A stretch of 12,813 nt of DNA, taken from assembly GCA_002731295.1 (NCBI GenBank), contig PCBE01000015.1:24865-37677 (forward strand), read 5' to 3'. This DNA is from Acidiferrobacteraceae bacterium. GTDB taxonomy: Bacteria > Pseudomonadota > Gammaproteobacteria > Arenicellales > UBA868. Position 1 is the stretch's first letter. Each line of letters begins with the position of its first letter. The position numbers were made by a program, and so were the translations under genes. Shown here in pieces: positions 191 through 12,813 of the stretch. The notes under the pieces are model-generated. The model was not told the origin of the DNA, searched no databases, and worked only from the letters and a program-made list of their open reading frames with translations.

Positions 191-2599
191 TTACGAGCTC
201 CGACAAGCCGAAAGAATCGATTTTGCATCGAGCTGGTAAGCCTGGTAAAGCTCGGTGAGCGTACCCGATTCTCCATATCGATCGACCCCCAGCCCGTACA
301 CACGGTGCCCTGCCACAGCCCCTAACCAGGTCAGTACCGATGGATGTCCGTCCGTAACCGTCACGATGCGGACATTCGAGTCAATCGCACCAAGAAGTTT
401 TTCGATCTGTGCAGAACACTTTTCTAATCCGCGGTACCGTATCCGCTGTGCTTCCATCCAGCCGCGATGAAGACGATCAGCCGAAGTAATGGCAAGCACC
501 GCAGTCGAGTCAGGAGAGCCATGGTTGAGTTCGTCACAACTCTCGATCACCTGGGGCGCAACTGCGCCGATATATGCTATCACAACAGAACAGGAAGATT
601 GCGGAGGTACCAACCAGTATCCGCCATCTATAATCTCAGCCGTTAGCGTATCGTCAATCTCTCGATCGAGCTGCTCTATGCGACGTGTCGTAAGGCGCAA
701 GTAGACAGATCCACCGCGTCGATCACCGAGCAAATCAGCGCCTATAGCAATATCTTGGCCCTCCGTCTCCTCATGTTGTAGATACGAAAACGCAAAACTC
801 ATGATCGCTGAAAGTTCATCGGTAAACGCTGGCTCGAATGATGCCAAGCCCGGCTTGCTCATTCCGATCAGAGGCGTCCCAATAGACTGATGAGCACCGC
901 CTTCTGGCGCCAATGAGATACCTGAAGGTGTAGCGACCAGCAAAAAACGTGCATCCTGGTAACAAGCATAATTCAATGCATCCAGGCCCCTTTCGACAAA
1001 CGGATCGTAGATTGTGCCCACGGGTAACAGGCGTTCTCCGAAGATCGAATGAGAAAGGCCCGCCGCCGCCAAGAGCAGAAAAAGGTTGTTTTCAGCAATG
1101 CCCAGTTCAATATGCTGTCCAGTTGGCGATGCTCGCCACCTATGCATCGTTTGTAGCTCCTCAACGGTAAACATGTCTGTCTGGCCATTGACATGGAACA
1201 GTCCACGCTGGTTTACCCAGCCACTTAGATTTGTTGACACAGTCACGTCGGGCGATACAGTAATGATCCTTTGAGCGAGTTCAGTATCCTGCCTGGCTAA
1301 ACTCGCCAGTACTCGACCAAATGCTTCCTGGGTTGACATTTGATGCCCGTCCGGTTTTGGAAAAGGATAAGGCACCGCGACCACAGGTGAATTTTTTCGC
1401 CTCTGGCTCGCTGTACAAAAAGGTGCGCTGTGTAAGAACGAACGCAATTCCGACTCTGGCACACCTGTGCCCGCTGACGGCAACCACTCCTCTCCATCAC
1501 TGATATTATGTTCAGACTTCAGTCGTTGGATCTGCTCAGACGTCAACATTCCGGCGTGATTGTCTTTGTGGCCAGCCAGCGGCAGTCCAAACCCTTTAAT
1601 GGTATAGGCGAAAAAACAGGTGGGCTTGTCATCGCCTATGCTTTCAAATGCCTCCAGCATGCTTTCGATACAGTGCCCACCAAGGTTAGTCATCAAGGCA
1701 TTCAGTGCACGGTCGTCATACCGTGCCAATAATTCCGACACGCTGGAACGGGATCCCATATCCGCCTGGAGCGCTTCACGCCAAGCTTCACCGCCTTTGT
1801 ACACCAAGGCGGAGTATTTTGAATTAGGGCAGGAGTCTATCCATTGCCGTAAAGCATCCCCACCGGGTTGCTCAAATGCTTTGTGTAGGAGTTTTCCATA
1901 CTTGATCGTTACCACCTCCCATCCCATACTCACAAACAACCGGTGGAAACGTGTTAACAAGCGATCTGAAATGATCGCATCCAGACTCTGACGGTTATAG
2001 TCGACGATCCACCACAGATCCCGCACACTGTGCTTCCAACCTTCAAGCAACGCTTCATAGATGTTGCCCTCATCAAGTTCAGCATCGCCCAACACACAAA
2101 CCATTCTGCTCCTGGAGCTTCGCCATGAATGCGCCTCAAGGTAGTCCTGAATGAGCGCAGCGAAACTTGTCATCGCCACACCCAGTCCAACCGAGCCCGT
2201 CGAAAAGTCCACGTCATCGATATCTTTTGTGCGTGATGGGTAGGACTGCGCGCCCCCAAGCGCCCTGAACTTGGAAAGATGATCTTTATCCTGTTTTCCA
2301 AACAGATACTGAATGGCATGAAAAACAGGACTACCGTGGGGCTTAACTGCGACGCGATCTTCTGGCTTCAAGACTGCAAAGTAAAGAGCAGTCATGATCG
2401 TCACCATGGATGCACAGGACGCCTGATGGCCGCCTACCTTTAGTTCGCCATCGCCCTCCCGAATATGATTCGCATGGTGAATCATCCAGGTGGACAACCA
2501 CAGCACCTTTTTCTCGAGGATCTTGAGAAAATGCAGTTGGTTCGGCGTGTTGCCAGTTGGAGGTGGTTCGTCGTCCGGGTCGAAAGAGATCACTTGCAT
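191..2599 (-). CDS. Thiamine-diphosphate-dependent 2-oxoacid dehydrogenase E1 component, homodimeric (AceE/MdeB-like)
   Basis: This 802-residue protein has the three-part layout of homodimeric pyruvate dehydrogenase E1 and transketolases. An N-terminal TPP domain (about 30-370) holds G-G-H (56-58), P-H-G-S-P (87-91) and the TPP/Mg motif G-D-A-E-L-D-E (171-177) with Asn202. A pyrimidine domain (about 425-610) holds G-I-A-E-N-N (500-505), whose Glu503 is the likely cofactor-activating residue. A C-terminal domain follows (about 665-800). The predicted reaction is decarboxylation of a short 2-oxoacid, then acyl transfer to a lipoyl E2. E. coli AceE is 887 residues, so this one is shorter, and the usual G-D-G is G-D-A here. 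No E2 or E3 gene is visible. A stand-alone E1 divergent from an Lrp-type regulator resembles mdeB/mdeR of Pseudomonas putida, suggesting 2-oxobutyrate or a related oxoacid; this is inference. Start: ATG at 2599 is preferred; an in-frame TTG at 2608 is possible, and neither has a clear Shine-Dalgarno sequence. Confidence 0.85.
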   Translation of the reverse strand: MQVISFDPDDEPPPTGNTPNQLHFLKILEKKVLWLSTWMIHHANHIREGDGELKVGGHQASCASMVTIMTALYFAVLKPEDRVAVKPHGSPVFHAIQYLFGKQDKDHLSKFRALGGAQSYPSRTKDIDDVDFSTGSVGLGVAMTSFAALIQDYLEAHSWRSSRSRMVCVLGDAELDEGNIYEALLEGWKHSVRDLWWIVDYNRQSLDAIISDRLLTRFHRLFVSMGWEVVTIKYGKLLHKAFEQPGGDALRQWIDSCPNSKYSALVYKGGEAWREALQADMGSRSSVSELLARYDDRALNALMTNLGGHCIESMLEAFESIGDDKPTCFFAYTIKGFGLPLAGHKDNHAGMLTSEQIQRLKSEHNISDGEEWLPSAGTGVPESELRSFLHSAPFCTASQRRKNSPVVAVPYPFPKPDGHQMSTQEAFGRVLASLARQDTELAQRIITVSPDVTVSTNLSGWVNQRGLFHVNGQTDMFTVEELQTMHRWRASPTGQHIELGIAENNLFLLLAAAGLSHSIFGERLLPVGTIYDPFVERGLDALNYACYQDARFLLVATPSGISLAPEGGAHQSIGTPLIGMSKPGLASFEPAFTDELSAIMSFAFSYLQHEETEGQDIAIGADLLGDRRGGSVYLRLTTRRIEQLDREIDDTLTAEIIDGGYWLVPPQSSCSVVIAYIGAVAPQVIESCDELNHGSPDSTAVLAITSADRLHRGWMEAQRIRYRGLEKCSAQIEKLLGAIDSNVRIVTVTDGHPSVLTWLGAVAGHRVYGLGVDRYGESGTLTELYQAYQLDAKSILSACRSS

Positions 2600-2644
2600 G
2601 TGGATCAAACAGGATGCTGGGGTATCGGGTCAATATATTGCTTT

Positions 2645-2665
2645 TAATTAGAATTTATCTACTTA
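2645..2665. promoter_or_regulatory. 21-bp dyad, candidate operator for the Lrp-family regulator
   Basis: Arms TAATTAGA (2645-2652) and TCTACTTA (2658-2665) are inverted copies with 7 of 8 pairs matching around a 5-bp AT-only centre. The core TAG-N7-CTA resembles the YAG...CTR half-site pattern known for Lrp-family proteins, though with a spacer of 7 rather than 9. It lies between the divergent E1-type and Lrp-type genes, just upstream of a candidate -10 element, where bound protein would affect the regulator's own promoter. The dyad is directly visible; its role as an operator is inference. Confidence 0.4.
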
Positions 2666-2671
2666 TTTTCC

Positions 2672-2680
2672 TGCTATATT
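2672..2680 (+). promoter_or_regulatory. Candidate extended -10 promoter of the Lrp-family regulator gene
   Basis: The bases TGCTATATT form an extended -10 element (TG, one base, then TATATT, matching five of six consensus bases). No good -35 hexamer lies 16-18 bp upstream, which is usual for extended -10 promoters. The implied transcript would start near 2687 and give a leader of about 42 nt before the ATG at 2729. The dyad at 2645-2665 covers the expected -35 zone, as in an autoregulated promoter. Confidence 0.35.
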
Positions 2681-2695
2681 TGGACTTTAAGCATT

Positions 2696-2704
2696 TTTAT
2701 ATCA
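2696..2704 (-). promoter_or_regulatory. Weak candidate -10 promoter for the E1-type gene
   Basis: On the minus strand these bases read TGATATAAA, which fits an extended -10 (TG, one base, TATAAA). No convincing -35 is visible. If used, transcription would start near 2689 and give a leader of about 90 nt, so the two divergent transcripts would begin within a few bases of each other and the promoters would compete. The region is so AT-rich that such matches arise readily by chance. Confidence 0.2.
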
Positions 2705-2728
2705 AATTTATTCGAACAGAGAAATAAT

Positions 2729-3199
2729 ATGCCTTATAGCTTCGACAGCACGGATCGCCGGATTCTTCAGGTCATTCAGGAGAATGCACGAATTTCGAAT
2801 ACCGAACTGGCGGATCGTATTGGGCTTTCCCCGTCACCCTGCTGGCGACGGGTGCGTACGCTCGAGGATAATGGCGTCATTGAACGGTACGTGACCCTGG
2901 TCAATGCGAAAGCTGTTGGTCTGCCGATCACTGTATTTGCGACTGTCGCTCTCGAAAAACAGGTCGAGCCCGCATTAGAGTCATTCGAGAAGGCGGTGAT
3001 GGAACGACCTGAAGTTATGGAGTGCAATCTCATGACCGGCGAGTTCGACTATCTGCTTCGAGTAGTAGTACCCGACCTTGTTGCTTACGAACGCTTCCTG
3101 ATGGATCATTTAACACGTATTAAAGGAATCGCCAGTATCAAGTCGAGTTTTTCACTCAAACAGGTCAGCTATAAGACAGCGCTGCCACTACCCAGTTGA
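2729..3199 (+). CDS. Lrp/AsnC-family transcriptional regulator
   Basis: This 156-residue protein has the usual length and layout of the Lrp/AsnC family. Residues 5-50 form the winged helix-turn-helix: the opening F-D-S-T-D-R-R-I-L is typical, and the recognition helix [11 protein letters not shown] falls at 33-43. Residues about 66-146 form the RAM ligand-binding and oligomerisation domain, including [10 protein letters not shown] (104-113) and the late I-K-S-S-F-S-L-K segment. Such proteins bind DNA as dimers to octamers and usually sense an amino acid or a small metabolite. A weak AGAGA ribosome-binding site precedes the ATG. It is divergent from the E1-type gene and 46 bp upstream of the thiolase-like gene on the same strand, so it may control both directions and itself. 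Its position resembles mdeR, or bkdR for branched-chain oxoacid dehydrogenase; the effector is unknown. Confidence 0.93.
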
Positions 3200-3245: not shown

Positions 3246-4751
3246 GTGAAACTACGAGAGCCTGTAATTGTCGGTGTTGCACAGGTTTCACAACGAGAAG
3301 ATGACCCTTTAGCAGCCCGATCACCGCTGGATCTCATGGTCGATGCTGTATCCCAGGCAGCGCTAGATAGCGGCAATCCTGAGATTCTAAAATCCACAAA
3401 CTCTATCCGGGTGGTCCGGGGTATGTGGGGCTACCAGAACCCAGCGCAGTCCATAGCCGAGAAGCTCCACTTAACACAGATCGAAACCGGACTTACATCA
3501 CTCGGCGGCAACTATGTGCAGACACTGGCAAATCAAAGCTTTCTGGATATCCAATCGGGACACTCGGATATCATTGTGCTCACCGGAGCTGAATGTGGAC
3601 GGACGCAATCACGTGCACGATCGGCCGGCTTGACCCTCGACTGGAACCCTGTTTCTGCTACCCCCGGACAAGACCCAATCGGTAGAGCTCAGGGGATCAC
3701 GCAACCCGATGTATTTATTGGCAGCCAACGCAATACCCGTCACCAGGCTGAACTTCAACGCGGGATTCGACACCCCATCCAGTACTATCCTCTGTTTGAA
3801 ATTGCTTTACGGTCTGCTTCAGGCGAAACGGTGTCGAACCACTTCGAAAGAATCGCCAGACTTTGGTCCGGTTTCAGCACCGTAGCAAAAAACAACCCAG
3901 ACGCCTGGATTCAACGTGAGTATTCAGCACAAGAGATCGCCACTGTTACTCAATTTAATCGGCCGGTATCACTGCCCTACCCCAAGTTGATGAATTCAAA
4001 CAACAGCGTTGATCAGGGTGCCGCCCTCATCGTGACATCGTCAACGAAAGCTAAACAACTCGGTATTCCTCGCGACCGATGGATCTACCCGCATGCCTCG
4101 ACGGAAGCCTGGGATCACCTTCATGTGTCTGAACGAGATAACCTGTATTCGTCGCCGGCCATCCGCCTTGCAGCTGCGCGACTACTTGAATTGACCAACC
4201 TCGATTCGAGAAGTTTCGACTATGTCGACCTTTACAGTTGCTTTCCATCCGCAGTCCAAATCGCTGCAAACGAAATTGGCCTGTCCCTGAACCAGCCACT
4301 AACCGTAACCGGCGGCCTGACATTTGCCGGCGGTCCTTGGAACAATTATGTCATGCACGCAATCGCACGTACCGCTATTCTGCTGCGATCAAATCCCGCC
4401 GCGCTTGCCTTGGTTACAGCCAATGGCGGATTGCTGACCAAACACGCGTTGTGTATCTATTCCGGCACGCCACCCCAACAACCATTCGCCTGGGCCAGCC
4501 TCCAAAAAGATGTAGACAACCTGTACCGACGCCCTGTCAAAGCCAGTCACGAAGGGGAAGCAGCGATAGAGACCTACACCGTCATGTATGAAAACCAGGC
4601 GCCAAGCGTCGCATATGCTGCGTGCCTTCTGGACGACGGACAGAGAACGTGGGCAAATATCCTGGATCCAGACATCATTGCCAGTATGATCACAGAGGAA
4701 TTTTGTGGCCGCTCTGGGAAAATAGATGCCAATGGCCACTTTATCCCATAG
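3246..4751 (+). CDS. Thiolase-like protein type 1 (TLP1) with extra C-terminal domain and degenerate active site
   Basis: This 501-residue protein carries the thiolase fold, followed from about residue 405 by the additional C-terminal domain of type 1 thiolase-like proteins. It is often labelled acetyl-CoA acetyltransferase, but the catalytic motifs are altered. The nucleophile-cysteine region reads G-G-N-Y-V-Q-T-L-A-N-Q (87-97) with no cysteine. The HDCF-type motif reads Y-S-C-F (330-333). The GHP motif is G-G-P (362-364). The CxG region reads T-A-N-G-G (391-395). Ordinary thiolysis therefore looks unlikely; CoA-ester binding or a non-thiolase reaction is more plausible. The GTG start at 3246 is supported by AAGGCG at 3232-3237, 8 bp upstream. 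It is the first enzyme gene after the Lrp-type regulator, and only 15 bp separate it from the next gene, so co-transcription is likely. Confidence 0.85.
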   Translation: MKLREPVIVGVAQVSQREDDPLAARSPLDLMVDAVSQAALDSGNPEILKSTNSIRVVRGMWGYQNPAQSIAEKLHLTQIETGLTSLGGNYVQTLANQSFLDIQSGHSDIIVLTGAECGRTQSRARSAGLTLDWNPVSATPGQDPIGRAQGITQPDVFIGSQRNTRHQAELQRGIRHPIQYYPLFEIALRSASGETVSNHFERIARLWSGFSTVAKNNPDAWIQREYSAQEIATVTQFNRPVSLPYPKLMNSNNSVDQGAALIVTSSTKAKQLGIPRDRWIYPHASTEAWDHLHVSERDNLYSSPAIRLAAARLLELTNLDSRSFDYVDLYSCFPSAVQIAANEIGLSLNQPLTVTGGLTFAGGPWNNYVMHAIARTAILLRSNPAALALVTANGGLLTKHALCIYSGTPPQQPFAWASLQKDVDNLYRRPVKASHEGEAAIETYTVMYENQAPSVAYAACLLDDGQRTWANILDPDIIASMITEEFCGRSGKIDANGHFIP

Positions 4752-4766
4752 AGCTAACTTAGTATT

Positions 4767-5744
4767 GTGACCGCTTGTGTAACTCATATTCCCTGTGACC
4801 AGGTCACTTATCTAGGCCAGGGGCTCGTACGGCCCGAATGTGTTCTAGCGACCCGCAAAGGCGACATCTATGCCAGCCACGGTGAGGGCGGCATCACACA
4901 TATAACTCCCACGGATGACGTTACAATCTATTTCGCCAACAACAGTGAGAAGCCCGCTGATTTTTTGCCGAATGGCTTCTCTCTCCGGCCAGATGGCTCT
5001 TTTCTTGTCGCTAACCTCGGTCAGTCGGGTGGTGTCTACGTGCTTGAGCGAGACGGTTCATTGCAACTCTTAATCAATGAAATCGACGGGTTGGCACTAC
5101 CGGCAACCAATTTTGCTAATCTCGATCGAGAGGGTCGGATCTGGATCTCTGTAAGCACAACTGCAATTGACCGAGAAAAATCGTTTAACAAATCTATAGC
5201 AGACGGATTTATCGCGCTCGTTGACCACTCAGGCGCTCGAATTGTCGCGGATGGAATCGGCTTCACTAATGAAAACAAGGTTGATCCCTCCGGCCACTGG
5301 TTGTACGTCCATGAAACAATGGGTCGATCGTTGTTGCGATTCCCGATACGAGCAAATGGTGACCTCGGCCCACGTGAAACGGTTACCGACTACGGTTCGG
5401 GAGTTTATCCCGACGGGTTTGAGTTCGACAGTGAAGGTGGTGTCTGGTGTACCAGTGTACTTAGCAATCGAATTATTCGGTTGGATCCAGATGGTGTTCA
5501 GCAGATAATCATCGATGCCGGTAACCCTGATCTAGTCGAGCGTGCCGAGTTAGCCTATCGGACTAATACGTTTTCCCGTTCATTGATCAACGAGGGTCTG
5601 CATAGCCCACTTGGAAACTGCGCTAGCTTGTGTTTTGGCGGCAACGACCTTAAGACCGTATACATCGGCAGCCTTCATCTGGACAAAATAGCCTGTTTTC
5701 GTTCACCCGTGGCGGGAACACCCCCGTCCCACTGGCTGTTCTAG
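4767..5744 (+). CDS. SMP-30/gluconolactonase family hydrolase (probable lactonase)
   Basis: This 325-residue protein spans the six-bladed beta-propeller of the SMP-30/gluconolactonase/LRE family. Residues matching the family's metal and substrate ligands are visible: Glu24 in R-P-E-C, Asn115 in A-T-N-F-A-N, Asn168 in F-T-N-E-N and Asp216 in Y-P-D-G-F-E-F-D. The ending R-S-P-V-A-G-T-P-P-S-H-W fits the family C-terminus, so the TAG stop looks genuine. There is no signal peptide, so it should act in the cytoplasm. Family members use a divalent metal to hydrolyse lactones, and some act as organophosphatases or hydratases. The GTG start lies 15 bp after the thiolase-like gene and has only a weak ribosome-binding site, so translational coupling is possible. 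With a Baeyer-Villiger monooxygenase in the same cluster, opening the resulting lactone is an attractive role, inferred from context only. Confidence 0.87.
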   Translation: MTACVTHIPCDQVTYLGQGLVRPECVLATRKGDIYASHGEGGITHITPTDDVTIYFANNSEKPADFLPNGFSLRPDGSFLVANLGQSGGVYVLERDGSLQLLINEIDGLALPATNFANLDREGRIWISVSTTAIDREKSFNKSIADGFIALVDHSGARIVADGIGFTNENKVDPSGHWLYVHETMGRSLLRFPIRANGDLGPRETVTDYGSGVYPDGFEFDSEGGVWCTSVLSNRIIRLDPDGVQQIIIDAGNPDLVERAELAYRTNTFSRSLINEGLHSPLGNCASLCFGGNDLKTVYIGSLHLDKIACFRSPVAGTPPSHWLF

Positions 5745-5753
5745 ACCCCGTTT

Positions 5754-5837
5754 ATGGCTGAGTATCAAGACACTCCTTGCAGCCCGACAGAACGCATGGT
5801 AGAAATGATTCGCATGAATAATGGAGTATATTTCTAA
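5754..5837 (+). CDS. Possible 27-residue leader ORF overlapping the HMG-CoA lyase start
   Basis: The gap before the lyase gene contains ATG, 26 further codons and TAA, with the TAA sharing its last base with the lyase ATG (TAATG). The peptide begins M-A-E-Y-Q-D-T-P-C and ends R-M-N-N-G-V-Y-F. It is in frame with the preceding SMP-30-type gene and starts three codons after that gene's TAG. No clear Shine-Dalgarno precedes its ATG, although ribosomes finishing the upstream gene could restart there. The lyase's own GGAG site (5823-5826) lies inside this frame. It could be a coupling peptide, a remnant, or chance; I do not recognise the peptide. Confidence 0.3.
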   Translation: MAEYQDTPCSPTERMVEMIRMNNGVYF

Positions 5838-6775
5838 TGACAAGACCGACAAAAGTCGAAGTGACCGAAGTAGGCCCACGTGATGGCTTGCAGGCAGAGC
5901 CCAGGTTTGTCGAGACCGAAATAAAGATCCAACTCGTCAACGATCTGATTGATGCAGGTGTCCCTCGCATAGAGTTCTCGTCCTTTGTTTCACCTCGTGC
6001 AGTTCCCCAACTCGCTGATGTTGCTGAAGTGTTTGAGGGTATCGACAGATCCGGTTCCACTGTACTTGCTGCTCTGGTACCAAACGCTAAAGGTGCAGTG
6101 CGCGCGGTCGATGCGGGTGTTCACGAAATCATCGTTTTCCTGTCCGCCTCAGAAAGTCATAACAAAAAAAATGTCAATCGGTCTGTCGAGGAATCCTTAG
6201 TTGGGTTTGAGGAGGTCGCACGAATCGCAGCTGAGTCGAGTATTCCAGTCCAAGGGGTCATCGCGACCGCGTTTGGGTGCCCTTTTGAAGGCGACGTACC
6301 GATCGAGCAACTTGGACGTATCGCGCAACACTACAGCAAACTCGGATTTAAAGGTATCGGACTAGGGGATACCACCGGTATGGCCACACCACCAATCGTA
6401 AGGCGCGCGGTCAAGTATCTTCAAGATACGCTGCCAGAACTCCCTATTGGACTTCACTTTCACAACACTCGGGGTCTGGGATTGGTCAATGTGATGGCTG
6501 GGCTAGATGAAGGCATAGACCAGTTCGACGCCTCATTTGGTGGAATCGGGGGCTGCCCCTTCGCTCCCAAAGCGACCGGCAATATCTGTACCGAAGATTT
6601 GGTCTACATGCTGCACGAAATGAATATCGATACGGGTGTTAATCTACAAGCGCTGATAACTATCGCCACACAGGTAGAAACAATCGTAGGGCACAATCTG
6701 CCCGGTCAGGTCATGAAAGCCGGACCCCGTCTTGACTTGCACTCGATGACTTCTGTTGCGACCGCACAAGGCTGA
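5837..6775 (+). CDS. mvaB: Hydroxymethylglutaryl-CoA lyase family enzyme
   Basis: This 312-residue TIM-barrel protein carries the main marks of HMG-CoA lyases. These are V-G-P-R-D-G-L-Q (12-19, with Arg15 and Asp16 matching catalytic Arg41/Asp42 of the human enzyme), F-V-S-P-R (50-54), the metal-binding H-F-H (207-209), and the signature G-G-C-P-F-A (238-243) with loop Cys240, followed by T-G-N (247-249). The family splits 3-hydroxy-3-methylglutaryl-CoA into acetoacetate and acetyl-CoA, the last step of leucine and acyclic-terpene breakdown. GGAG at 5823-5826 lies 10 bp before the ATG. The class III CoA-transferase follows after 19 bp. No methylcrotonyl-CoA carboxylase or methylglutaconyl-CoA hydratase gene is present, so the substrate may be a related 3-hydroxy-3-methylacyl-CoA rather than HMG-CoA from leucine. 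The family is secure, the exact substrate less so. Confidence 0.92.
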   Translation: MTRPTKVEVTEVGPRDGLQAEPRFVETEIKIQLVNDLIDAGVPRIEFSSFVSPRAVPQLADVAEVFEGIDRSGSTVLAALVPNAKGAVRAVDAGVHEIIVFLSASESHNKKNVNRSVEESLVGFEEVARIAAESSIPVQGVIATAFGCPFEGDVPIEQLGRIAQHYSKLGFKGIGLGDTTGMATPPIVRRAVKYLQDTLPELPIGLHFHNTRGLGLVNVMAGLDEGIDQFDASFGGIGGCPFAPKATGNICTEDLVYMLHEMNIDTGVNLQALITIATQVETIVGHNLPGQVMKAGPRLDLHSMTSVATAQG

Positions 6776-6794
6776 CCAACCGCAGTGACTCTCT

Positions 6795-7937
6795 GTGCCA
6801 CTTAAAGGTTTACGGGTTGTCGATCTTACTCGGATCCTCGCAGGTCCTTTCTGTACCCAACTTCTTGCGGACCTGGGCGCCGAAATTATCAAAATTGAAG
6901 GACCCGATGGAGATCCCGTCCGTCAACAGGGGGCCATTGTAAATGGGCTGAGTTGGTACTTCGCCCAGTTCAATCGAAACAAAAAATCCGTGGTACTGAA
7001 CCTGTACGACGACGATGACAAAAGCACACTGTCGCATCTTCTAGAAACAGCCGACGTTCTGGTTGAGAATTTCCGCCCAGGAATTCTTTCCGATATGGGT
7101 TTCGGACCACGGGAACTAGAGCGCCTCAACCCGAGGCTGATTCACGCCAGCGTAAACGGTTACGGCACTGTCGGGCCTTATGCCGATCGTCCTTCATTTG
7201 ACTTTATTGCCCAGGCCATGAGTGGCTTTATGAGCGTGAATGGACCCCCCGACGGCGAACCGCAGCGCGCTGCTCCGCCGTTAAGCGATCTCATTGCCGG
7301 GTTGTACTGTGCATTTGGGATTCTGGCCGCGCTGCACGAGCGAGGAAACAGCGGGATCGGCCAACAGGTTGAAACCAGCTTGACTGGTGGCCTTGTCAGC
7401 ATGTTGGCTTATCTCTCTGCTGAATATTTTGCAACTGGCGAGATACCCAAACGAACCGGCAATGATCATCCTATCGTATCGCCGTATGGATTATTCCGTG
7501 CCAAAGATGGAATGATTGCTGTCGCACCGTCAACTGATGTTTATGTCGAACGATTCTTGGAAGTGCTCGATCTCGAAGACCTACTGGCAGATCCACGCTA
7601 CAGCACCAATTCTGAAAGACTCCTGCACCGAAATACACTCTCACAGTGTATCAACGATGTGACCTGTCTACGGTCGGTTGCACACTGGATCACGGCCATC
7701 AACAATGCAGGCTGCCCTTGCGGAAGAGTGATGGATCTCGGTGAAGTGTTTGAGGACCCTCAAATCCTGGCACAGGAAATGGTTATCGACGTCCCCCATC
7801 CAGGTCACGGTAGCGTCAGGATGACCGGATTCCCGGTTAAGCTCTCACGAACACCCGCTGGTATTCAACGCCCGGCGCCGGACCTGGGTGCAGATACCGA
7901 AGACATACTCAGTAATCTCGACCAGCACCCACTCTAG
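6795..7937 (+). CDS. Class III (CaiB/BaiF) CoA-transferase
   Basis: This 380-residue protein matches the usual length and motifs of family III CoA-transferases. The N-terminal L-R-V-V-D-L-T-R-I-L-A-G-P-F-C (6-20) is followed by L-A-D-L-G-A-E-I-I-K-I-E (24-35). The N-R-N-K-K-S (60-65) and V-E-N-F-R-P-G (90-96) segments follow, and Asp165 in L-S-D-L-I-A-G is the likely catalytic aspartate that forms the acyl-enzyme anhydride. The enzyme moves CoA from a donor such as succinyl-CoA or acetyl-CoA to a free acid. The start is GTG, 19 bp after the lyase stop, with little Shine-Dalgarno character, consistent with coupling. Beside the lyase it could activate HMG or a similar dicarboxylate (the human family member SUGCT accepts glutarate and HMG); it could equally activate the acid released by the monooxygenase/lactonase pair. 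Substrate unproven. Confidence 0.92.
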   Translation: MPLKGLRVVDLTRILAGPFCTQLLADLGAEIIKIEGPDGDPVRQQGAIVNGLSWYFAQFNRNKKSVVLNLYDDDDKSTLSHLLETADVLVENFRPGILSDMGFGPRELERLNPRLIHASVNGYGTVGPYADRPSFDFIAQAMSGFMSVNGPPDGEPQRAAPPLSDLIAGLYCAFGILAALHERGNSGIGQQVETSLTGGLVSMLAYLSAEYFATGEIPKRTGNDHPIVSPYGLFRAKDGMIAVAPSTDVYVERFLEVLDLEDLLADPRYSTNSERLLHRNTLSQCINDVTCLRSVAHWITAINNAGCPCGRVMDLGEVFEDPQILAQEMVIDVPHPGHGSVRMTGFPVKLSRTPAGIQRPAPDLGADTEDILSNLDQHPL

Positions 7938-7959
7938 CGTGGGCAGCGCCATAGCTAGA
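7933..7959 (+). repeat. Interrupted hairpin at the CoA-transferase stop codon
   Basis: TCTAGC (7933-7938) pairs with GCTAGA (7954-7959), and inside it TGG (7940-7942) pairs with CCA (7949-7951) around a 6-base loop, leaving small bulges. The left arm contains the TAG stop. No T-run follows, so it is not a standard intrinsic terminator. It could protect the upstream mRNA from 3' exonucleases or lower expression of the following monooxygenase gene. The rest of the 76-bp gap (7938-8013) shows no promoter I can defend. Confidence 0.35.
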
Positions 7960-8013
7960 AACAACACTCCACAATACATCATCCGCCAAGCCTTTAGCAG
8001 CTGAATACCAAAC

Positions 8014-9945
8014 GTGTCGAAACGATCTCATACGACCTACGATCAGGCAGCTTTGTCAGCCGCAATTCGTGATGCCGACCTCAGGGTATTACTGATGAGC
8101 CTCGTACATCAGACGGGGGATACGCACTGGCTGGAAGCACCGTACACACCATGTCGTGACGTACGCCTGATTGCTGATCCCTCCGCTGGCTTGCCTGAGG
8201 CTGTGCAGTCGGATCTACGCGCACGCGCCATAGAGGTTTTTTCGCAATCCAGCTCTGGACCAGCCCTGACAAATCCAGATGATCACTTGATGATTAGAAT
8301 GATGAGTGCCTGCCTGGGTGAAGCAGTACCGCCAGAGTATGCACCGGCCATGCGTGATGAACTTGGCTTTACTGACCGGGATATTCACTGGTCTAAACCT
8401 CCAGAACAATCCGAGCTTGCCGGCCGGGATGTGTTGATCGTGGGAGCCGGCGTAAACGGTATTGTGCTGGGTGCCAAATTGGGTCAACTCGGTATCCGAT
8501 ATACCATAGTCGAGAAGAACAAGGGTGTGGGTGGGACCTGGCTGGAAAATTCTTATCCGGGTTGTGGAGTCGACACGCCCAATCACGCCTACTCACTCTC
8601 ATTCGGCCGACGGTACCGCTGGAGTCGATATTTTTCGCTGCGCGATGAAATTCAGGACTATCTGGAGTGTTGCGCCACTGAATTCGGCGTTCGAAGCCAT
8701 ATTCGTTTTCAAACAACCGTGAGGGGCGCCCAATGGATCGAGTCTGACCGCTGCTGGGAAACTGAGCTTGAAGGACCTGGTGGCAAGGAGCGTTTTCGCA
8801 GTGGGTTTCTGGTCAGCGCAATCGGCCAGTTCAATCAGTCCCGGAAGCCAACGATCCCCGGTTGTGAATCTTTTCAGGGAGAAGCATTTCACAGTGCACA
8901 CTGGCCACCAGAGTTAGATGTAACCAATCAGCGTGTCAGCATTATTGGTACCGGCGCTTCGGCAATGCAGATCGTGCCGTCAATTGCGAATCAGGTGAAG
9001 AGTCTGACGATCTACCAGCGTACGCCACAGTGGGTCCGGCCCATACCGGGTTATGGTGAATCAATCCCACAGGGCGCACAGTGGTTGCTGGAACAACTTC
9101 CCTACTATGTCGAGTGGTTTCGATTCACGATGTTATGGCGCTATGGAGATGGCTTATTGCCATATCTACGCAAAGATCCCGACTGGCCCCATCCAGAACG
9201 CGCGCTTAACCGGGTTAACGACAGACATCGACAGGAAATGGTTGACTTTATGTCGGACCAACTCCAAGACCACCCGGATCTCGCGGCTCACTGTCTTCCT
9301 GACTATCCAGCCTACGGCAAACGAATACTGCTGGATAATGGCTGGTATCACGCACTGACGCTGCCCCAGGTTCACCTCATTACTGACCCCATTAGTCGGA
9401 TTACAGAATCAGGAATCTTAACAACAGACGACGTCCATCGAAGCGCCGATGTCCTGATTTACGCGATTGGCTTTGAGATGATGCAGATGGCTTCACGCCT
9501 GAACATACAAGGCCGGGGTGGTATTGATCTTAAGGACACCTGGGACGGTGACAACCCAACAGCCTATTTAGGGATGACAGTTCCGGGGTACCCCAACTTT
9601 TTTTGCCTACTGGGTCCGAACACCGGCCTAGGCCATGGCGGCAGTGCTATGTTTCAGGCTGAGTGCCAGACTCGCTATGTCACTGCCTGCCTGGTCCGAA
9701 TGATTGAAGAGAACCTCGCCTCACTAGAAGTACGTCGTGACGCGCACGACAACTATGTTGAGCGAGTCGACAAAGAACATCAGCAAATGATCTGGTCGCA
9801 TCCTGGCATGACAACCTATTACCGTAATGCCCGAGGCCGAGTCGTAACTGTGATGCCCTGGAGGCTGGTTGACTACTGGGAGATGACACACGAGGCAGAT
9901 CTGTCCAATTACCACGTTGAACGCCGAACACGCGCTAGCCGTTAA
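8014..9945 (+). CDS. Type I Baeyer-Villiger flavin monooxygenase, 4-hydroxyacetophenone monooxygenase-like
   Basis: This 643-residue protein has an N-terminal extension of about 135 residues, then an FAD Rossmann motif G-A-G-V-N-G (144-149). Next comes the second BVMO fingerprint G-G-T-W-L-E-N-S-Y-P-G-C-G-V-D (173-187). The classical fingerprint F-x-G-x-x-x-H-x-x-x-W-P is intact at 287-298 (Phe287, Gly289, His293, Trp297), and an NADPH motif G-T-G-A-S-A (312-317) is followed by Arg336 in Y-Q-R-T-P. These mark an FAD- and NADPH-dependent monooxygenase that inserts oxygen next to a carbonyl. The long N-terminal extension and total length match the 4-hydroxyacetophenone monooxygenase type (about 640 residues) rather than the 540-residue cyclohexanone monooxygenases. 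The GTG start at 8014 has a poor ribosome-binding site. It is the last gene of the plus-strand run, 76 bp after the CoA-transferase. The ketone substrate is unknown; alicyclic or branched ketones suit the context. Confidence 0.92.
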   Translation: MSKRSHTTYDQAALSAAIRDADLRVLLMSLVHQTGDTHWLEAPYTPCRDVRLIADPSAGLPEAVQSDLRARAIEVFSQSSSGPALTNPDDHLMIRMMSACLGEAVPPEYAPAMRDELGFTDRDIHWSKPPEQSELAGRDVLIVGAGVNGIVLGAKLGQLGIRYTIVEKNKGVGGTWLENSYPGCGVDTPNHAYSLSFGRRYRWSRYFSLRDEIQDYLECCATEFGVRSHIRFQTTVRGAQWIESDRCWETELEGPGGKERFRSGFLVSAIGQFNQSRKPTIPGCESFQGEAFHSAHWPPELDVTNQRVSIIGTGASAMQIVPSIANQVKSLTIYQRTPQWVRPIPGYGESIPQGAQWLLEQLPYYVEWFRFTMLWRYGDGLLPYLRKDPDWPHPERALNRVNDRHRQEMVDFMSDQLQDHPDLAAHCLPDYPAYGKRILLDNGWYHALTLPQVHLITDPISRITESGILTTDDVHRSADVLIYAIGFEMMQMASRLNIQGRGGIDLKDTWDGDNPTAYLGMTVPGYPNFFCLLGPNTGLGHGGSAMFQAECQTRYVTACLVRMIEENLASLEVRRDAHDNYVERVDKEHQQMIWSHPGMTTYYRNARGRVVTVMPWRLVDYWEMTHEADLSNYHVERRTRASR

Positions 9946-9970
9946 CCATTACCCGCCTGCAACTGGTTAA
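9942..9970. terminator. Weak inverted repeat between convergent genes, possible shared transcript end
   Basis: TTAACCA (9942-9948) and TGGTTAA (9964-9970) form a 7-bp perfect inverted repeat with a 15-base loop, spanning the stop of the monooxygenase gene and most of the 31-bp gap to the convergent gene. It lacks a GC-rich stem and a T-run, so it is not a convincing intrinsic terminator. Its location is the only support. Confidence 0.2.
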
Positions 9971-9976
9971 ACACAG

Positions 9977-10948
9977 TTACTGAGGCATATCTGGCCAGCC
10001 ATCCTCATTCGGGGGGAACCAGAACTCATCGAGAGCTCTCTGAATTTCTACAAGGCAACGGTCGCGACGACGCTCAAACTCTTTGATCGATCGACCAGCC
10101 TGAATCTCTTCACAACCGACTGCGGTAGCATTCACCAGCTTCTCCGTAAAGTCCGGTGCTGGCAAATGTGTCCAACGGTTCGCCACCTCCGGCGCCCAAT
10201 GCGCCATTGAATGTCGAATTCCCCCTTCACCCCCGGCCAGATGAAACGTCAACATGGGCCCCAAAAATGCCCAACGCAAGCCAGGCCCACCAGTGATTGC
10301 AGCATCGATCTGTGCTGGAGTACAGATCCCCGCATCTATCATGTACAGCGCCTCGTGGAAAAGTACCTGCTGCAACCGGTCCGAGATATAACCGTCGATT
10401 TCAACCGGCGCCAAAAGCGGTCGCATTGCAAGTGATCGATAGAACGCAGCACCTGCTCGCAGGGCATCCTCATCGGTTGCCTGGCCCCCGACTATTTCCA
10501 CCAAAGGCAGTAAATAGACAGGATTGAAAGGATGCCCAATCATGACTCTTTGCGGATACTGCGTTTTTTCCTGCAGCAGAGTTGGCCGAATGCCAGACGA
10601 ACTGGACGCAATGACGACATCAGGCGGAAGGAGTTGGTCAGCTTGGTTAAGCAACCGGATTTTAAGCGCCTCGTCATCCGGTGCATTTTCCTGAACATAA
10701 TCTGCAACCGACAACGCAGTCTCTAAGGAGGTTTCAAACTTCAGCCGACTTCGATCTGCACCGGACTGCAGGCCAACCTCTTCCAAAATAGGCCACGCAT
10801 TATCCACGTTGGCAAACAGCGTGGCCTCAGCCGAGGGATCCGGGTCCCATGCAACCACATCCAGGCCGTGAGCAAGACACCGAGCAGCCCAGCCGCTGCC
10901 AATCAGTCCAGCACCCAGGAGCACCACCGTATTAACCGGGTCACGCAT
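9977..10948 (-). CDS. L-carnitine dehydrogenase-like 3-hydroxyacid/3-hydroxyacyl-CoA dehydrogenase
   Basis: This 323-residue protein is a 3-hydroxyacyl-CoA dehydrogenase fold enzyme. It has the NAD motif G-A-G-L-I-G (12-17), Asp35 selecting NAD over NADP, E-N-A-P-D-D (87-92), S-S-S-S-G-I (115-120), and the catalytic His139 in G-H-P-F-N-P. Residues 225-246 (R-W-A-F-L-G-P then H-L-A-G-G-E-G-G-I-R-H) and the length of about 320 are typical of carnitine 3-dehydrogenase, which oxidises L-carnitine to 3-dehydrocarnitine. No partner genes of carnitine breakdown (3-dehydrocarnitine cleavage enzyme, betainyl-CoA thioesterase, glycine betaine demethylation) are in view, so another 3-hydroxy acid or acyl-CoA is possible. 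AGGGA lies about 7 bp before the ATG, which fixes the start. It is the last gene of the minus-strand run, 36 bp after the acyl-CoA dehydrogenase. Confidence 0.88.
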   Translation of the reverse strand: MRDPVNTVVLLGAGLIGSGWAARCLAHGLDVVAWDPDPSAEATLFANVDNAWPILEEVGLQSGADRSRLKFETSLETALSVADYVQENAPDDEALKIRLLNQADQLLPPDVVIASSSSGIRPTLLQEKTQYPQRVMIGHPFNPVYLLPLVEIVGGQATDEDALRAGAAFYRSLAMRPLLAPVEIDGYISDRLQQVLFHEALYMIDAGICTPAQIDAAITGGPGLRWAFLGPMLTFHLAGGEGGIRHSMAHWAPEVANRWTHLPAPDFTEKLVNATAVGCEEIQAGRSIKEFERRRDRCLVEIQRALDEFWFPPNEDGWPDMPQ

Positions 10949-10984
10949 TATCTTTCCCTGTGACTTTTTTTGAATCAGCGGGGT

Positions 10985-12184
10985 TCAGTGCGGTTTCAGC
11001 TCCAGCCGAGCAATCTGATTTCGATGAACCTCATCCGGCCCGTCGGCTAAACGGAGCAAACGTGCAGTTGCATAAGCATGTCCGAGACCAAAGTCATCGG
11101 AGACACCACCACCACCGTGCGCTTGAATCGCCCAGTCGATAACCTGACAGGCCATATTGGGCGCTGCCACTTTAATCATCGCGATTTCTTTGCGCGCCTC
11201 TTTGTTACCATACTGGTCCATCTTGTGGGCGGTATACAGTGTCAGTAATCGATTCTGATCTATCATAATCCGAGCTTCGGCGATTCGTTCCTGAGTCACG
11301 GTCTGTTCAGCAACAGGTCGGCCAAATGCTACGCGGGATTTCACCCGGCGGCACATAGCCTCGAGCGCACGTTCTGCTAAGCCGATCAAACGCATACAGT
11401 GATGAATGCGGCCCGGGCCAAGGCGGCCCTGAGCTATCTCAAAACCCCGGCCTTCTCCAAGCAACATATTCGACGCGGGCACTCGAACATTCTCAAATAA
11501 CACCTCGGCATGACCGTGAGGTGCATCATCAAAACCCAGCACGGGGAGATGCCGGAGCACCTTGACACCGGGCGCTGACATTGGAATGAGAATCATCGAC
11601 TGCTGTCGGTAGCGATCCTCGTTATCGGGGTCTGTCTTACCCATAAATATCAGAACCTTACAGCGGGGGTCGTTGGCACCTGAGGTCCACCATTTATGTC
11701 CGCTGACCACATACTCCGCCCCATCTCTGCGAATTTCAGACTGAATGTTAGTCGCGTCGGACGAGGCGACATCGGGCTCGGTCATCGCGAATGCAGAACG
11801 TATTTCTCCAGCCAGCAAAGGTGTCAGCCATTCATCCTGTTGCTCCGGGGAGCCATAACGTGACAACACTTCCATGTTTCCAGTATCGGGCGCGGAACAG
11901 TTGAATACCTCAGGCGCATAGGGGGAGCGCCCCATCACTTCACATAACGGTGCATACTCGTAATTACTCAGGCCAGCGCCCAGTTCACTTTCCGGCAAAA
12001 AGAGATTCCACAGGCCAACCTCCCTCGCTTTGGTCTTCAATCCCTCTACGATCTCAGAAGGCTGCCAACGATCTCCTGTTGATAACTCTTCCTTAATTGG
12101 GGTTTCATTAGGATAAATATGTTCATCCATGAATTCTGACAACTGTCTGTGGAGTTCCGCACTCCGCTGCGATGTTTCTATCAT
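10985..12184 (-). CDS. Acyl-CoA dehydrogenase, ACAD10/11 type
   Basis: This 399-residue flavoprotein has the all-helical N-terminal domain and then the FAD/substrate strand [12 protein letters not shown] (132-143). S-G-H-K-W-W-T-S-G (161-169) follows, and the helical C-terminal domain carries Q-A-H-G-G-G-G-V-S (354-362). It desaturates an acyl-CoA at the alpha-beta position and passes electrons to electron-transfer flavoprotein. The late motif A-D-G-P-D-E-V-H-R (380-388), together with the [10 protein letters not shown] segment (253-262), points to the ACAD10/11 branch. There the Tyr-Glu-Gly-Thr motif bearing the usual catalytic Glu of medium-chain enzymes is replaced by a D-G-P-D type sequence. 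Branch members often take long or substituted chains. GGGGGT lies about 9 bp upstream of the ATG. It sits between the FadB-like and carnitine dehydrogenase-like genes, with 59- and 36-bp gaps, so probably one operon. Confidence 0.93.
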
Positions 12185-12243
12185 GATTGACTACCCCCAG
12201 TCAGATTAGGCGATAAATATTTTCAAAACTTCAGCAAACAGAA

Positions 12244-12813
12244 TTATGCGCCTTTTGAATGATTTCCAGCATCATAGGATTCGAAAGACTCACCATCTTC
12301 GGACAACTTCTCCAGTAACCGCGACAGTTTCCAGTGATCAAGATCAGATCTATCTGAATAGCGCCGGACACCGTCAGCCACAACATCAAGTCCAACCGCA
12401 CCGGCCCAGTGCATAGGCCCACCACGCCAAACCGGGAAGCCGTAACCATTCAAATAGACCAGGTCAATATCACTTGCCCGAAGTGCAATACCTTCCTCAA
12501 GAATAGTAGCGCCAATATTAATCAGGGGATACAGGCAACGTTCTAGAATCTCCTGGTCATCAAAATCGCGTGGCCCATCACCAAATTGGCGTGCGGCCTG
12601 CTCCGCCAAGTCCTTTACTTCCGGATCCGGCACTGGGACTCTGCTGCCCTTCTCATACAGGTAGTAGCCTCTGCGCGTTTTCTGGCCATATCGACCTAAT
12701 TCACAAAGTCTGTTGGCTACAAATGAACCGGGGACATCAGCAGCAACACCATGTCCAGCAGCTTTTCGTTTTGCCCATCCAATATCCAGGCCAGCCAGAT
12801 CCGATACCGCAAG
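12244..12813 (-). CDS. FadB-like 3-hydroxyacyl-CoA dehydrogenase, C-terminal part (runs off right edge)
   Basis: The frame is open from the right edge of the window to the TAA at 12244-12246 and gives 189 residues of a larger protein. Both helical 3-hydroxyacyl-CoA dehydrogenase C-terminal repeats are recognisable. The first has A-V-S-D-L-A-G-L-D-I-G-W at the very edge, then R-L-C-E-L-G-R-Y-G-Q-K-T and Y-Y-L-Y-E-K-G-S-R. The second has I-N-I-G-A-T-I-L-E-E-G-I-A, then V-Y-L-N-G-Y-G-F-P-V-W-R-G-G-P-M. This is the pattern of bifunctional enoyl-CoA hydratase/3-hydroxyacyl-CoA dehydrogenases (FadB/FadJ type, around 700 residues). The hydratase and NAD-binding domains lie outside the window. A GTG at 12633 falls inside the conserved first repeat and is not the start. 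It is the upstream member of the minus-strand run and would supply the hydration and oxidation steps of beta-oxidation. Confidence 0.92.
   Translation of the reverse strand, partial: LAVSDLAGLDIGWAKRKAAGHGVAADVPGSFVANRLCELGRYGQKTRRGYYLYEKGSRVPVPDPEVKDLAEQAARQFGDGPRDFDDQEILERCLYPLINIGATILEEGIALRASDIDLVYLNGYGFPVWRGGPMHWAGAVGLDVVADGVRRYSDRSDLDHWKLSRLLEKLSEDGESFESYDAGNHSKGA

What the first reader, a model, noticed from the sequence alone, without database searches (positions are those of the whole stretch)
3246..12813. Candidate undescribed pathway: Baeyer-Villiger oxidation feeding CoA-dependent breakdown of a branched ketone
One compact region combines a BVMO, a lactonase-family hydrolase, a class III CoA-transferase, an HMG-CoA lyase homologue and a degenerate thiolase. 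Facing them are an acyl-CoA dehydrogenase, a FadB-like enzyme and a carnitine dehydrogenase-like enzyme. Families are read from motifs; the joint route (ketone to lactone to hydroxy acid to acyl-CoA, then lyase cleavage at a methyl-branched carbon) is inference. I know of no named pathway with exactly this set.
Basis: partly seen in the sequence, partly recalled or inferred. Interest (0 to 1): 0.7.

Follow-up and report, generated by a model that had tools for sequence, protein, structure and literature searches.

The report
Composite ketone and acyl-CoA degradation island
A probably marine bacterium carries a cluster of real breakdown genes around a ketone-oxidising enzyme, but comparison with relatives suggests several portable modules side by side rather than one demonstrated new pathway; two of its enzymes were under-described and point to testable chemistry.

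Summary
In detail: the window encodes a TLP1-type thiolase-like protein, an SMP-30/lactonase-family protein, an HMG-CoA lyase homologue, a class III CoA-transferase and a type I BVMO, facing a carnitine-dehydrogenase-like enzyme, an acyl-CoA dehydrogenase and FadB. One linear route is only partly supported. Both blocks stay together in 3 of 3 genomes where both can be read, but gene order is conserved there anyway (control region: 7 of 8 genes collinear). Elsewhere the parts separate: lactonase-lyase-CoA-transferase stands without BVMO in three genus-g6 genomes, the lyase-transferase pair in three more, and the G007 island lacks the lactonase. Corrections: the dehydrogenase is of ACAD10/11-LvaC type (4-hydroxyacyl-CoA chemistry; the kinase is encoded elsewhere). 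The "degenerate thiolase" belongs to a published family without thiolase activity; its invariant Tyr-Ser-Cys-Phe motif falls on catalytic positions of the aldolase Sal, and its C-terminal domain resembles DUF35, so it may be a ketone-releasing aldolase. The island continues beyond the window with kynurenine-pathway genes and an Opp-type importer. Best reading: a composite catabolic island; new variant of a known kind.

The parts
3246..4751 (+). TLP1 (thiolase-like protein type 1), 501 aa; thiolase nucleophile Cys replaced by Gly, Y330-S-C332-F motif, C-terminal OB-like domain; possible acyl-CoA retro-aldolase
   Evidence: PF18313 42 bits over cut-off 26.1; PDB 4egv E=2.5e-52; motif in 90 of 90 rows; models and fold comparison
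4767..5744 (+). SMP-30/gluconolactonase-family protein (SGL), 325 aa; absent from the G007 island
   Evidence: PF08450 E=4e-25; orthologues 60-61% in L205-L207; no hit in L003
5837..6775 (+). HMG-CoA lyase-type retro-Claisen lyase, 312 aa, catalytic motifs kept; a second lyase, 45% identical, lies at G000:C83
   Evidence: NF004283 351 bits, cut-off 246; alignment to four solved lyases; paralogue
6795..7937 (+). Class III CoA-transferase, 380 aa, 19 bp after the lyase
   Evidence: PF02515 E=3.6e-129; best PDB hits YfdE (4hl6) and a succinate-hydroxymethylglutarate CoA-transferase (9br7)
8014..9945 (+). Type I BVMO with about 138-residue N-terminal extension (4-hydroxyacetophenone-monooxygenase-like), 643 aa
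   Evidence: OTEMO best PDB match; named relatives
9977..10948 (-). Carnitine-dehydrogenase-like 3HCDH-fold dehydrogenase (CDH), 323 aa
   Evidence: PF02737/PF00725; NF005471 350.5 bits below cut-off 414; best PDB 4om8; relatives >=63% only in G000, G003, G007 of 100 genomes, a 49-56% paralogue being widespread
10985..12184 (-). ACAD10/11-LvaC-type acyl-CoA dehydrogenase, 399 aa, no kinase domain
   Evidence: residues as in PMC12440821; paralogue next to a kinase at G000:C60
12244..12813 (-). C-terminal 189 aa of a 706-aa FadB-type multifunctional beta-oxidation enzyme, continues outside the window
   Evidence: 3HCDH; FadB models; full frame
2729..3199 (+). Lrp/AsnC-family regulator, 46 bp before TLP1; forms a divergent pair with the E1-like gene, also in other genomes
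191..2608 (-). Transketolase/pyruvate-dehydrogenase-E1-like protein, 805 aa, divergent from Lrp
   Evidence: homologues beside Lrp elsewhere

Best explanation
This is a composite catabolic island of a (probably marine) gammaproteobacterium, not one demonstrated linear pathway. Three functional units lie side by side. (i) A portable cassette SGL - HMGL - class III CoA-transferase: the CoA-transferase activates a free 3-hydroxy-3-methylglutarate-like acid (possibly from a lactone or ester opened by SGL) and the lyase cleaves it to acetyl-CoA and a keto acid. (ii) TLP1 and BVMO in the same run of genes: BVMO turns a ketone into an ester or lactone. (iii) A facing set Opp permease genes - FadB - LvaC-type dehydrogenase - carnitine-DH-like enzyme that takes imported or BVMO-derived hydroxy acids, as 4-hydroxyacyl-CoA, into beta-oxidation, using a kinase encoded elsewhere. 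Shown here: gene content, families, active-site residues, synteny, modularity. Inferred: substrates, order of steps, co-expression.
For: SGL-HMGL-CoAT stands with 60-61/73-74/73% identity and without BVMO in the fetched stretches of G012, G008, G014; HMGL-CoAT likewise in G379 (71/67%), G185 (53/56%), G337 (54/57%): 6 of 6 lyase relatives found at >=52% outside the TLP1-bearing genomes have the transferase next door. The second-best PDB hit of the CoA-transferase is a succinate-hydroxymethylglutarate CoA-transferase. Lyase active-site motifs kept. ACAD keeps the four residues named for 4-phosphoacyl-CoA chemistry; a paralogue beside an APH kinase is in the same genome. At least one Opp permease gene follows FadB on the same strand in G000, G003, G007, and a binding protein in G003, the only one whose contig reaches that far. 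In G014 and G008 the LvaC-like gene, the BVMO and the lyase cassette lie on different contigs. Opp-type genes (35-53% to the island's) also lie within the fetched stretch of the g6 cassette, 3 of 3.
Against: The two blocks do stay together across two genera, which a single pathway would also predict. No substrate is known for any member. The 4-hydroxyacyl-CoA inference is family-level; the kinase is not in the cluster. g6 genomes are fragmented MAGs, so 'different contigs' does not prove distance. Absence of BVMO beside the cassette is judged on stretches of at most 20 kb.
Confidence: 0.5

Rival explanations
1. One reading: an imported branched or cyclic ketone is oxidised by BVMO to a lactone, opened by SGL, activated by the CoA-transferase or ligase, carried through LvaC-type dehydrogenase, FadB and CDH, and cleaved by the HMGL-type lyase at a methyl-branched carbon.
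For: Blocks together in 3 of 3 readable genomes; LvaC-type dehydrogenase implies a hydroxyacyl-CoA such as a lactone yields; G007 has an acyl-CoA ligase between CDH and ACAD. A BVMO-lactone-lactonase scheme has been proposed for SAR202 (PMC5395668, passages).
Against: SGL missing in G007; SGL-HMGL-CoAT and HMGL-CoAT occur without BVMO nearby; collinearity is the norm between these genomes.
Confidence: 0.18
2. Aldolase-first route: TLP1 is an acyl-CoA retro-aldolase that cleaves a 3-hydroxyacyl-CoA with a branched carbinol to acyl-CoA plus a ketone; BVMO then oxidises that ketone; the ester or lactone is opened and the acid re-enters beta-oxidation.
Against: Other OB folds tie within 1 Z unit; the full-length model is as close to DUF35-partnered thiolases as to aldolases; Asp of YDCY is Ser here; Sal itself was not aligned to TLP1 residue by residue. 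TLP1 has a BVMO hit in 0 of 77 other loci, mostly titled Actinobacteria and many of them short, and in 1 of 9 f10 genomes.
Confidence: 0.15
3. Neighbours without functional link: amino-acid (kynurenine, E1/Lrp), HMG-type acid and beta-oxidation genes that share a site and are kept by slow gene-order change.
For: General collinearity G000-G007 and G000-G003; flanking genes that read like gcvP, lipA and a sulfur-amino-acid lyase (names from reading the sequences) are collinear too; E1-Lrp pair and lyase cassette are portable.
Against: Tight spacing within each strand run, and importer genes following FadB on one strand, suggest operons at least within each block.
Confidence: 0.17

Closest known systems
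P. putida lva (levulinate) operon and mammalian ACAD10/11
   Same: The window dehydrogenase belongs to the LvaC/ACAD10/11 group and keeps its catalytic Asp and Arg/His/Arg pocket
   Different: No LvaA-type kinase in the cluster; a kinase-linked paralogue sits at another locus
4-hydroxyacetophenone monooxygenase-type BVMOs
   Same: N-terminal extension, length and source-named relatives at 56-60% identity among the 120 listed of 4531 hits
   Different: Substrate untested; surrounded by acyl-CoA genes rather than a hydroquinone pathway (hydroquinone pathway recalled)
MsTLP1 (4egv), thiolase-like protein type 1
   Same: Gly for the nucleophile, YSCF fingerprint, extra C-terminal barrel
   Different: MsTLP1 is of unknown function; here TLP1 shares a strand run with BVMO
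Steroid side-chain aldolases Sal and Ltp2 with DUF35
   Same: Tyr and Cys of the Sal motif at the matching place; DUF35-like C-terminal domain
   Different: Single chain instead of two proteins; YSCF not YDCY/YDHF; I recognised no steroid genes beside it
Succinate-hydroxymethylglutarate CoA-transferase plus HMG-CoA lyase
   Same: Class III CoA-transferase next to an HMG-CoA lyase
   Different: Scores far below the curated CoA-transferase equivalogs; a lactonase-family gene precedes the lyase in six genomes (G000, G002, G003, G008, G012, G014)
SAR202 BVMO-lactone scheme for alicyclic DOM (PMC5395668, passages)
   Same: Idea of ketone to lactone to acid in marine bacteria
   Different: SAR202 enzymes are FMN/F420 type II BVMOs; this one is an FAD-type (type I) BVMO

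Membership tests
Type I BVMO | FMO-like FAD/NADPH fold with two Rossmann motifs and F-x-G-x3-H-x3-W fingerprint (motif recalled) | tested here: met
   Pfam hits; GAGVNG, GTGASA and FQGEAFHSAHW in the translation; OTEMO E=2.1e-67
Type I BVMO | Converts a ketone to an ester or lactone | not testable with these tools
   needs enzyme assay
HMG-CoA lyase | Curated score and catalytic motifs (PRDG, HxH, GGCP) | tested here: met
   351 bits over 246; alignment with 6nds, 1ydo, 2ftp, 2cw6; residue roles recalled
HMG-CoA lyase | Cleaves HMG-CoA itself | not testable with these tools
   the genome has a second lyase, 45% identical, which may serve leucine breakdown (duty inferred)
Succinate-glutarate CoA-transferase (NF052585) | NCBIfam equivalog cut-off | tested here: not met
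   308.3 of 750 bits; member of CoA_transf_3 only
L-carnitine dehydrogenase (NF005471) | Curated cut-off 414 bits | tested here: not met
   350.5 bits
LvaC/ACAD10/11 dehydrogenases | Catalytic Asp and Arg/His/Arg pocket named in PMC12440821 as particular to this group | tested here: met
   all four identical to ACAD11 (chain positions 625, 633, 636, 752 = paper numbers minus 1); also kept in 4hr3, so family-level
lva operon | LvaA-type kinase encoded with LvaC | tested here: not met
   no APH hit on C21; APH next to the paralogue on C60
Canonical thiolase | Nucleophilic Cys in CxS | tested here: not met
   residues 87-89 read GGN in 89 and GGH in 1 of 90 rows; MsTLP1 has Gly at that place
TLP1 | PF18313 domain and YSCF fingerprint | tested here: met
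Sal/Ltp2-type acyl-CoA aldolase | Catalytic Tyr (and Cys in Sal) of the Y-x-C/H-F/Y motif | tested here: met
   Y330 and C332 at the motif, placed through thiolase alignments, not by aligning Sal itself
Sal/Ltp2-type acyl-CoA aldolase | DUF35 partner domain | tested here: inconclusive
Sal/Ltp2-type acyl-CoA aldolase | Retro-aldol activity on 3-hydroxyacyl-CoA | not testable with these tools
   needs enzyme assay

The most novel reading that the evidence does not exclude
TLP1, an orphan thiolase-like family found here mostly in Actinobacteria and in some Proteobacteria, is an acyl-CoA retro-aldolase with a built-in DUF35-like domain. In this operon it releases a ketone from a branched 3-hydroxyacyl-CoA, and the neighbouring BVMO oxidises that ketone so that the remaining chain can re-enter beta-oxidation through 4-hydroxyacyl-CoA: an aldolase-then-Baeyer-Villiger bypass of a methyl branch. 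I saw no such proposal for TLP1 in the held library; the same logic was published for the trypanosomal SLP (PMC12329534, passages).
Probability: 0.18. Interest if true: 0.75.

Novelty: new variant of a known kind. Interest (0 to 1): 0.42.

Why it matters
If the blocks act together, they would show how uncultured, probably marine bacteria dismantle branched or cyclic ketones, a plausible part of slowly degraded dissolved organic matter. Independently of that, the TLP1 observation gives an orphan family with a solved structure a concrete, cheap test (retro-aldolase activity), and the LvaC-type dehydrogenase narrows the chemistry of this cluster to hydroxyacyl-CoA intermediates.

Tried and rejected
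Rejected: 'acyl-CoA dehydrogenase = ordinary beta-oxidation'. Rejected as proof: conserved neighbourhood in G003/G007, because an unrelated region is equally collinear. Considered and dropped: Lrp as the regulator of the BVMO run; it forms a divergent pair with the E1-like gene in 8 of 8 contigs fetched for that gene outside the TLP1-bearing genomes (G004, G008, G012, G015, G021, G026, G043, G072; Lrp cut by the contig end in G012; two further E1-like places, G026:C121 and G008:C94, were not fetched), so it may belong to that gene. Considered: kynurenine-type ketones as BVMO substrate; no evidence. Considered: TLP1-BVMO as a general pair; a BVMO hit lies in 0 of 77 other TLP1 loci (mostly titled Actinobacteria, many short) and in 1 of 9 f10 genomes, so not general. 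G001 (same genus, 86% complete) has the kynurenine genes up to a contig end, but no TLP1, lyase, E1-like or ACAD hit at the thresholds used and only a 37% partial BVMO hit; whether the rest was lost or not assembled cannot be told. Naive ORF calling in GC-rich loci missed genes; tblastn was used instead. Fold comparison of full-length TLP1 did not separate aldolases from DUF35-partnered thiolases.

Literature: searched for BVMO with CoA-transferase, CoA lyase or HMG-CoA lyase, HMG with CoA-transferase, and 4-hydroxyacetophenone monooxygenase with acyl-CoA synthetase. None of the papers that I looked at describes this gene set; one search listed 12 of 26 papers and only one held all three terms (PMC7888143). 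Most listings were not opened, among them the Parvibaculum genome paper and the KynR papers. PMC7888143 and PMC8084838 (passages) report HMG-CoA-lyase-like proteins abundant in acetone-grown sulfate reducers, another ketone route without BVMO.
Full report
What the window is. It is G000:C21:24865-37677, a 2.5-Mb, 126-contig genome, 82% complete. The nearest named relatives of its TLP1 gene are MAGs REDSEA-S15_B12 (Gammaproteobacteria, 94%) and SP340 (64%); 'marine' is my inference from such names and from a 'marine metagenome' BVMO relative. The SP340 contig has the length of G007's contig C22 and the REDSEA contig that of G002's C27. No tRNA, and no Rfam family at gathering threshold, was found.

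Gene check. Spacing is tight: TLP1-SGL 15 bp, SGL-HMGL 92, HMGL-CoAT 19, CoAT-BVMO 76, then convergent 31 bp to CDH; CDH-ACAD 36, ACAD-FadB 59 (with the listed first start codons). FadB continues outside the window to 706 aa.

Wider island. Comparing G000, G003 (same genus) and G007 (another genus of the family) shows this order: Opp-type ATPase, alpha/beta hydrolase, kynureninase (308.9 bits, cut-off 246.4), indoleamine 2,3-dioxygenase (PF01231, E=2.8e-92), HisC-like aminotransferase, SDR, a mandelate-racemase-family enzyme (called in G003 and G007 only), E1-like protein, Lrp, then the TLP1-SGL-HMGL-CoAT-BVMO run, facing CDH, (acyl-CoA ligase in G007 only), ACAD, FadB and Opp permease genes. 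Both permeases and an Opp binding protein are complete in G003; the contigs of G000 and G007 end within the permease genes. The dioxygenase is also present in G000 at C21:21959-23047.

Does the pair of blocks stay together? Among the 33 genomes of the family searched (own genome included) TLP1 occurs in 4: G000, G002, G003, G007. G002's contig ends inside the lyase. In the other three the two blocks face each other in the same order. However, an unrelated region around the paralogous dehydrogenase is just as collinear: of 8 genes called on G000:C60, 7 have reciprocal best hits in G007 and 8 in G003, in the same order. Flanking genes that read like gcvP, lipA and a sulfur-amino-acid lyase are collinear too. 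Staying together is therefore weak evidence for a joint function.

Modules. The lyase orthologue (73-74%) outside the TLP1-bearing genomes occurs in G012, G008 and G014 of genus g6. In all three it sits in the order SGL-HMGL-CoAT (60-61/73-74/73%) and no BVMO or TLP1 is in the fetched stretch; Opp-type genes are. A phylum-wide sample of 299 genomes gave three more lyases at 52-71%, each directly followed by the CoA-transferase (56-67%), none with BVMO in the stretch; one lies next to a membrane protein that reads like a tripartite tricarboxylate transporter subunit (my reading of the sequence). The G007 island lacks SGL. The BVMO has full-length relatives at 42-44% in three g6 genomes and at 55-56% in 9 of 398 phylum genomes, all of one genus (named relatives of that level include Bradyrhizobium). 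Of 21 fetched neighbourhoods of full-length relatives, 15 have an acyl-CoA ligase hit in the stretch: 7 of 8 (of the 9 genomes just named one, G210, was not fetched), 1 of 3 at 39-40%, 3 of 3 in g6, 3 of 6 in family f10, 1 of 1 in G007; the G000 and G003 islands have none between CDH and FadB. In g6 the ligase converges on the BVMO in 3 of 3, with a 3-hydroxyacyl-CoA dehydrogenase behind it in 2 of 3, the third being cut by the contig end (27% to CDH; PF02737 169 bits for the one scanned). The E1-like/Lrp pair stands alone in other genera (8 of 8 contigs fetched).

Chemistry of the dehydrogenase. The window ACAD scores 484 bits with 4hr3 and 471 with ACAD11, and 147 with the next, ordinary ACAD. 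Residues that PMC12440821 names for ACAD11 and LvaC (R626, H634, R637 and catalytic D753; passages) all match in the alignment, with chain numbering one lower; 8v3v carries Asn at the D753 place, presumably its inactive variant. 4hr3 keeps them too, so this is a family-level trait. PMC11342911 (passages) describes the kinase plus LvaC reaction from 4-hydroxyacyl-CoA to enoyl-CoA. A 55% paralogue at G000:C60:2656-3819 has an APH-family kinase beside it, also in G002, G003 and G007, and one gene away in G015; in G014 a 68% relative of the window enzyme is followed by an APH kinase and an SDR. So the window enzyme most likely handles 4-hydroxyacyl-CoA after phosphorylation by a kinase encoded elsewhere (inference).

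Lyase and transferase. PRDG, HxH and GGCP motifs are kept (roles recalled). The CoA-transferase is closest in the PDB to YfdE and a succinate-hydroxymethylglutarate CoA-transferase but below every curated equivalog cut-off listed. The simplest job for the pair is activation and cleavage of a 3-hydroxy-3-methylglutarate-like acid.

Verdict. Observation confirmed; interpretation partly supported. The set is an unusual combination that I did not find in print (listings mostly unopened), but relatives show it to be built of portable parts, so a single 'branched ketone' route is one of several readings. The two useful corrections are the LvaC-type dehydrogenase and the aldolase-like active site of TLP1.

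Noticed in passing
L095 and L097 (left of the window); G000:C21:21959-23047: A kynurenine-type set (alpha/beta hydrolase, kynureninase, indoleamine 2,3-dioxygenase, HisC-like aminotransferase) lies in the same island; dioxygenase hits of >=64% occur only in G000, G001, G002, G003, G007 of 100 genomes.
   Followed up: partly
window 191-3199: An E1/transketolase-like gene divergent from an Lrp regulator is a recurring pair in three families; in G043 a protein that reads like a lipoyl-domain acyltransferase follows it, suggesting a 2-oxoacid dehydrogenase E1.
   Followed up: partly
L004:4343-6755: The E1-like gene is read in two pieces that meet in different frames in the REDSEA-S15_B12 contig, a frameshift or assembly error.
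   Followed up: no
L122, L123, L124: In genus g6 the BVMO homologue lies with a Meth_synt_2 protein, an arginase-family protein, an Amidohydro_3 protein, an acyl-CoA ligase and a 3-hydroxyacyl-CoA dehydrogenase (families scanned for L122 only): another unassigned set around this BVMO subfamily.
   Followed up: partly
L205, L206, L207: Opp-type binding-protein and permease genes (35-51% to the island's) lie a few kb from the free-standing SGL-HMGL-CoAT cassette of g6; the importer may go with that cassette.
   Followed up: partly
L008, L012, L022, L023, L059: Contigs titled Bifidobacterium breve carry TLP1 genes like those of other actinobacterial MAGs (the C-terminal parts of L008 and L012 nearly match L007); the organism names look wrong.
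   Followed up: no
L223-L226, L228-L230: In the f60/g139 genomes the BVMO forms an acyl-CoA ligase - short regulator-like gene - BVMO row, with ABC transporter genes nearby.
   Followed up: partly
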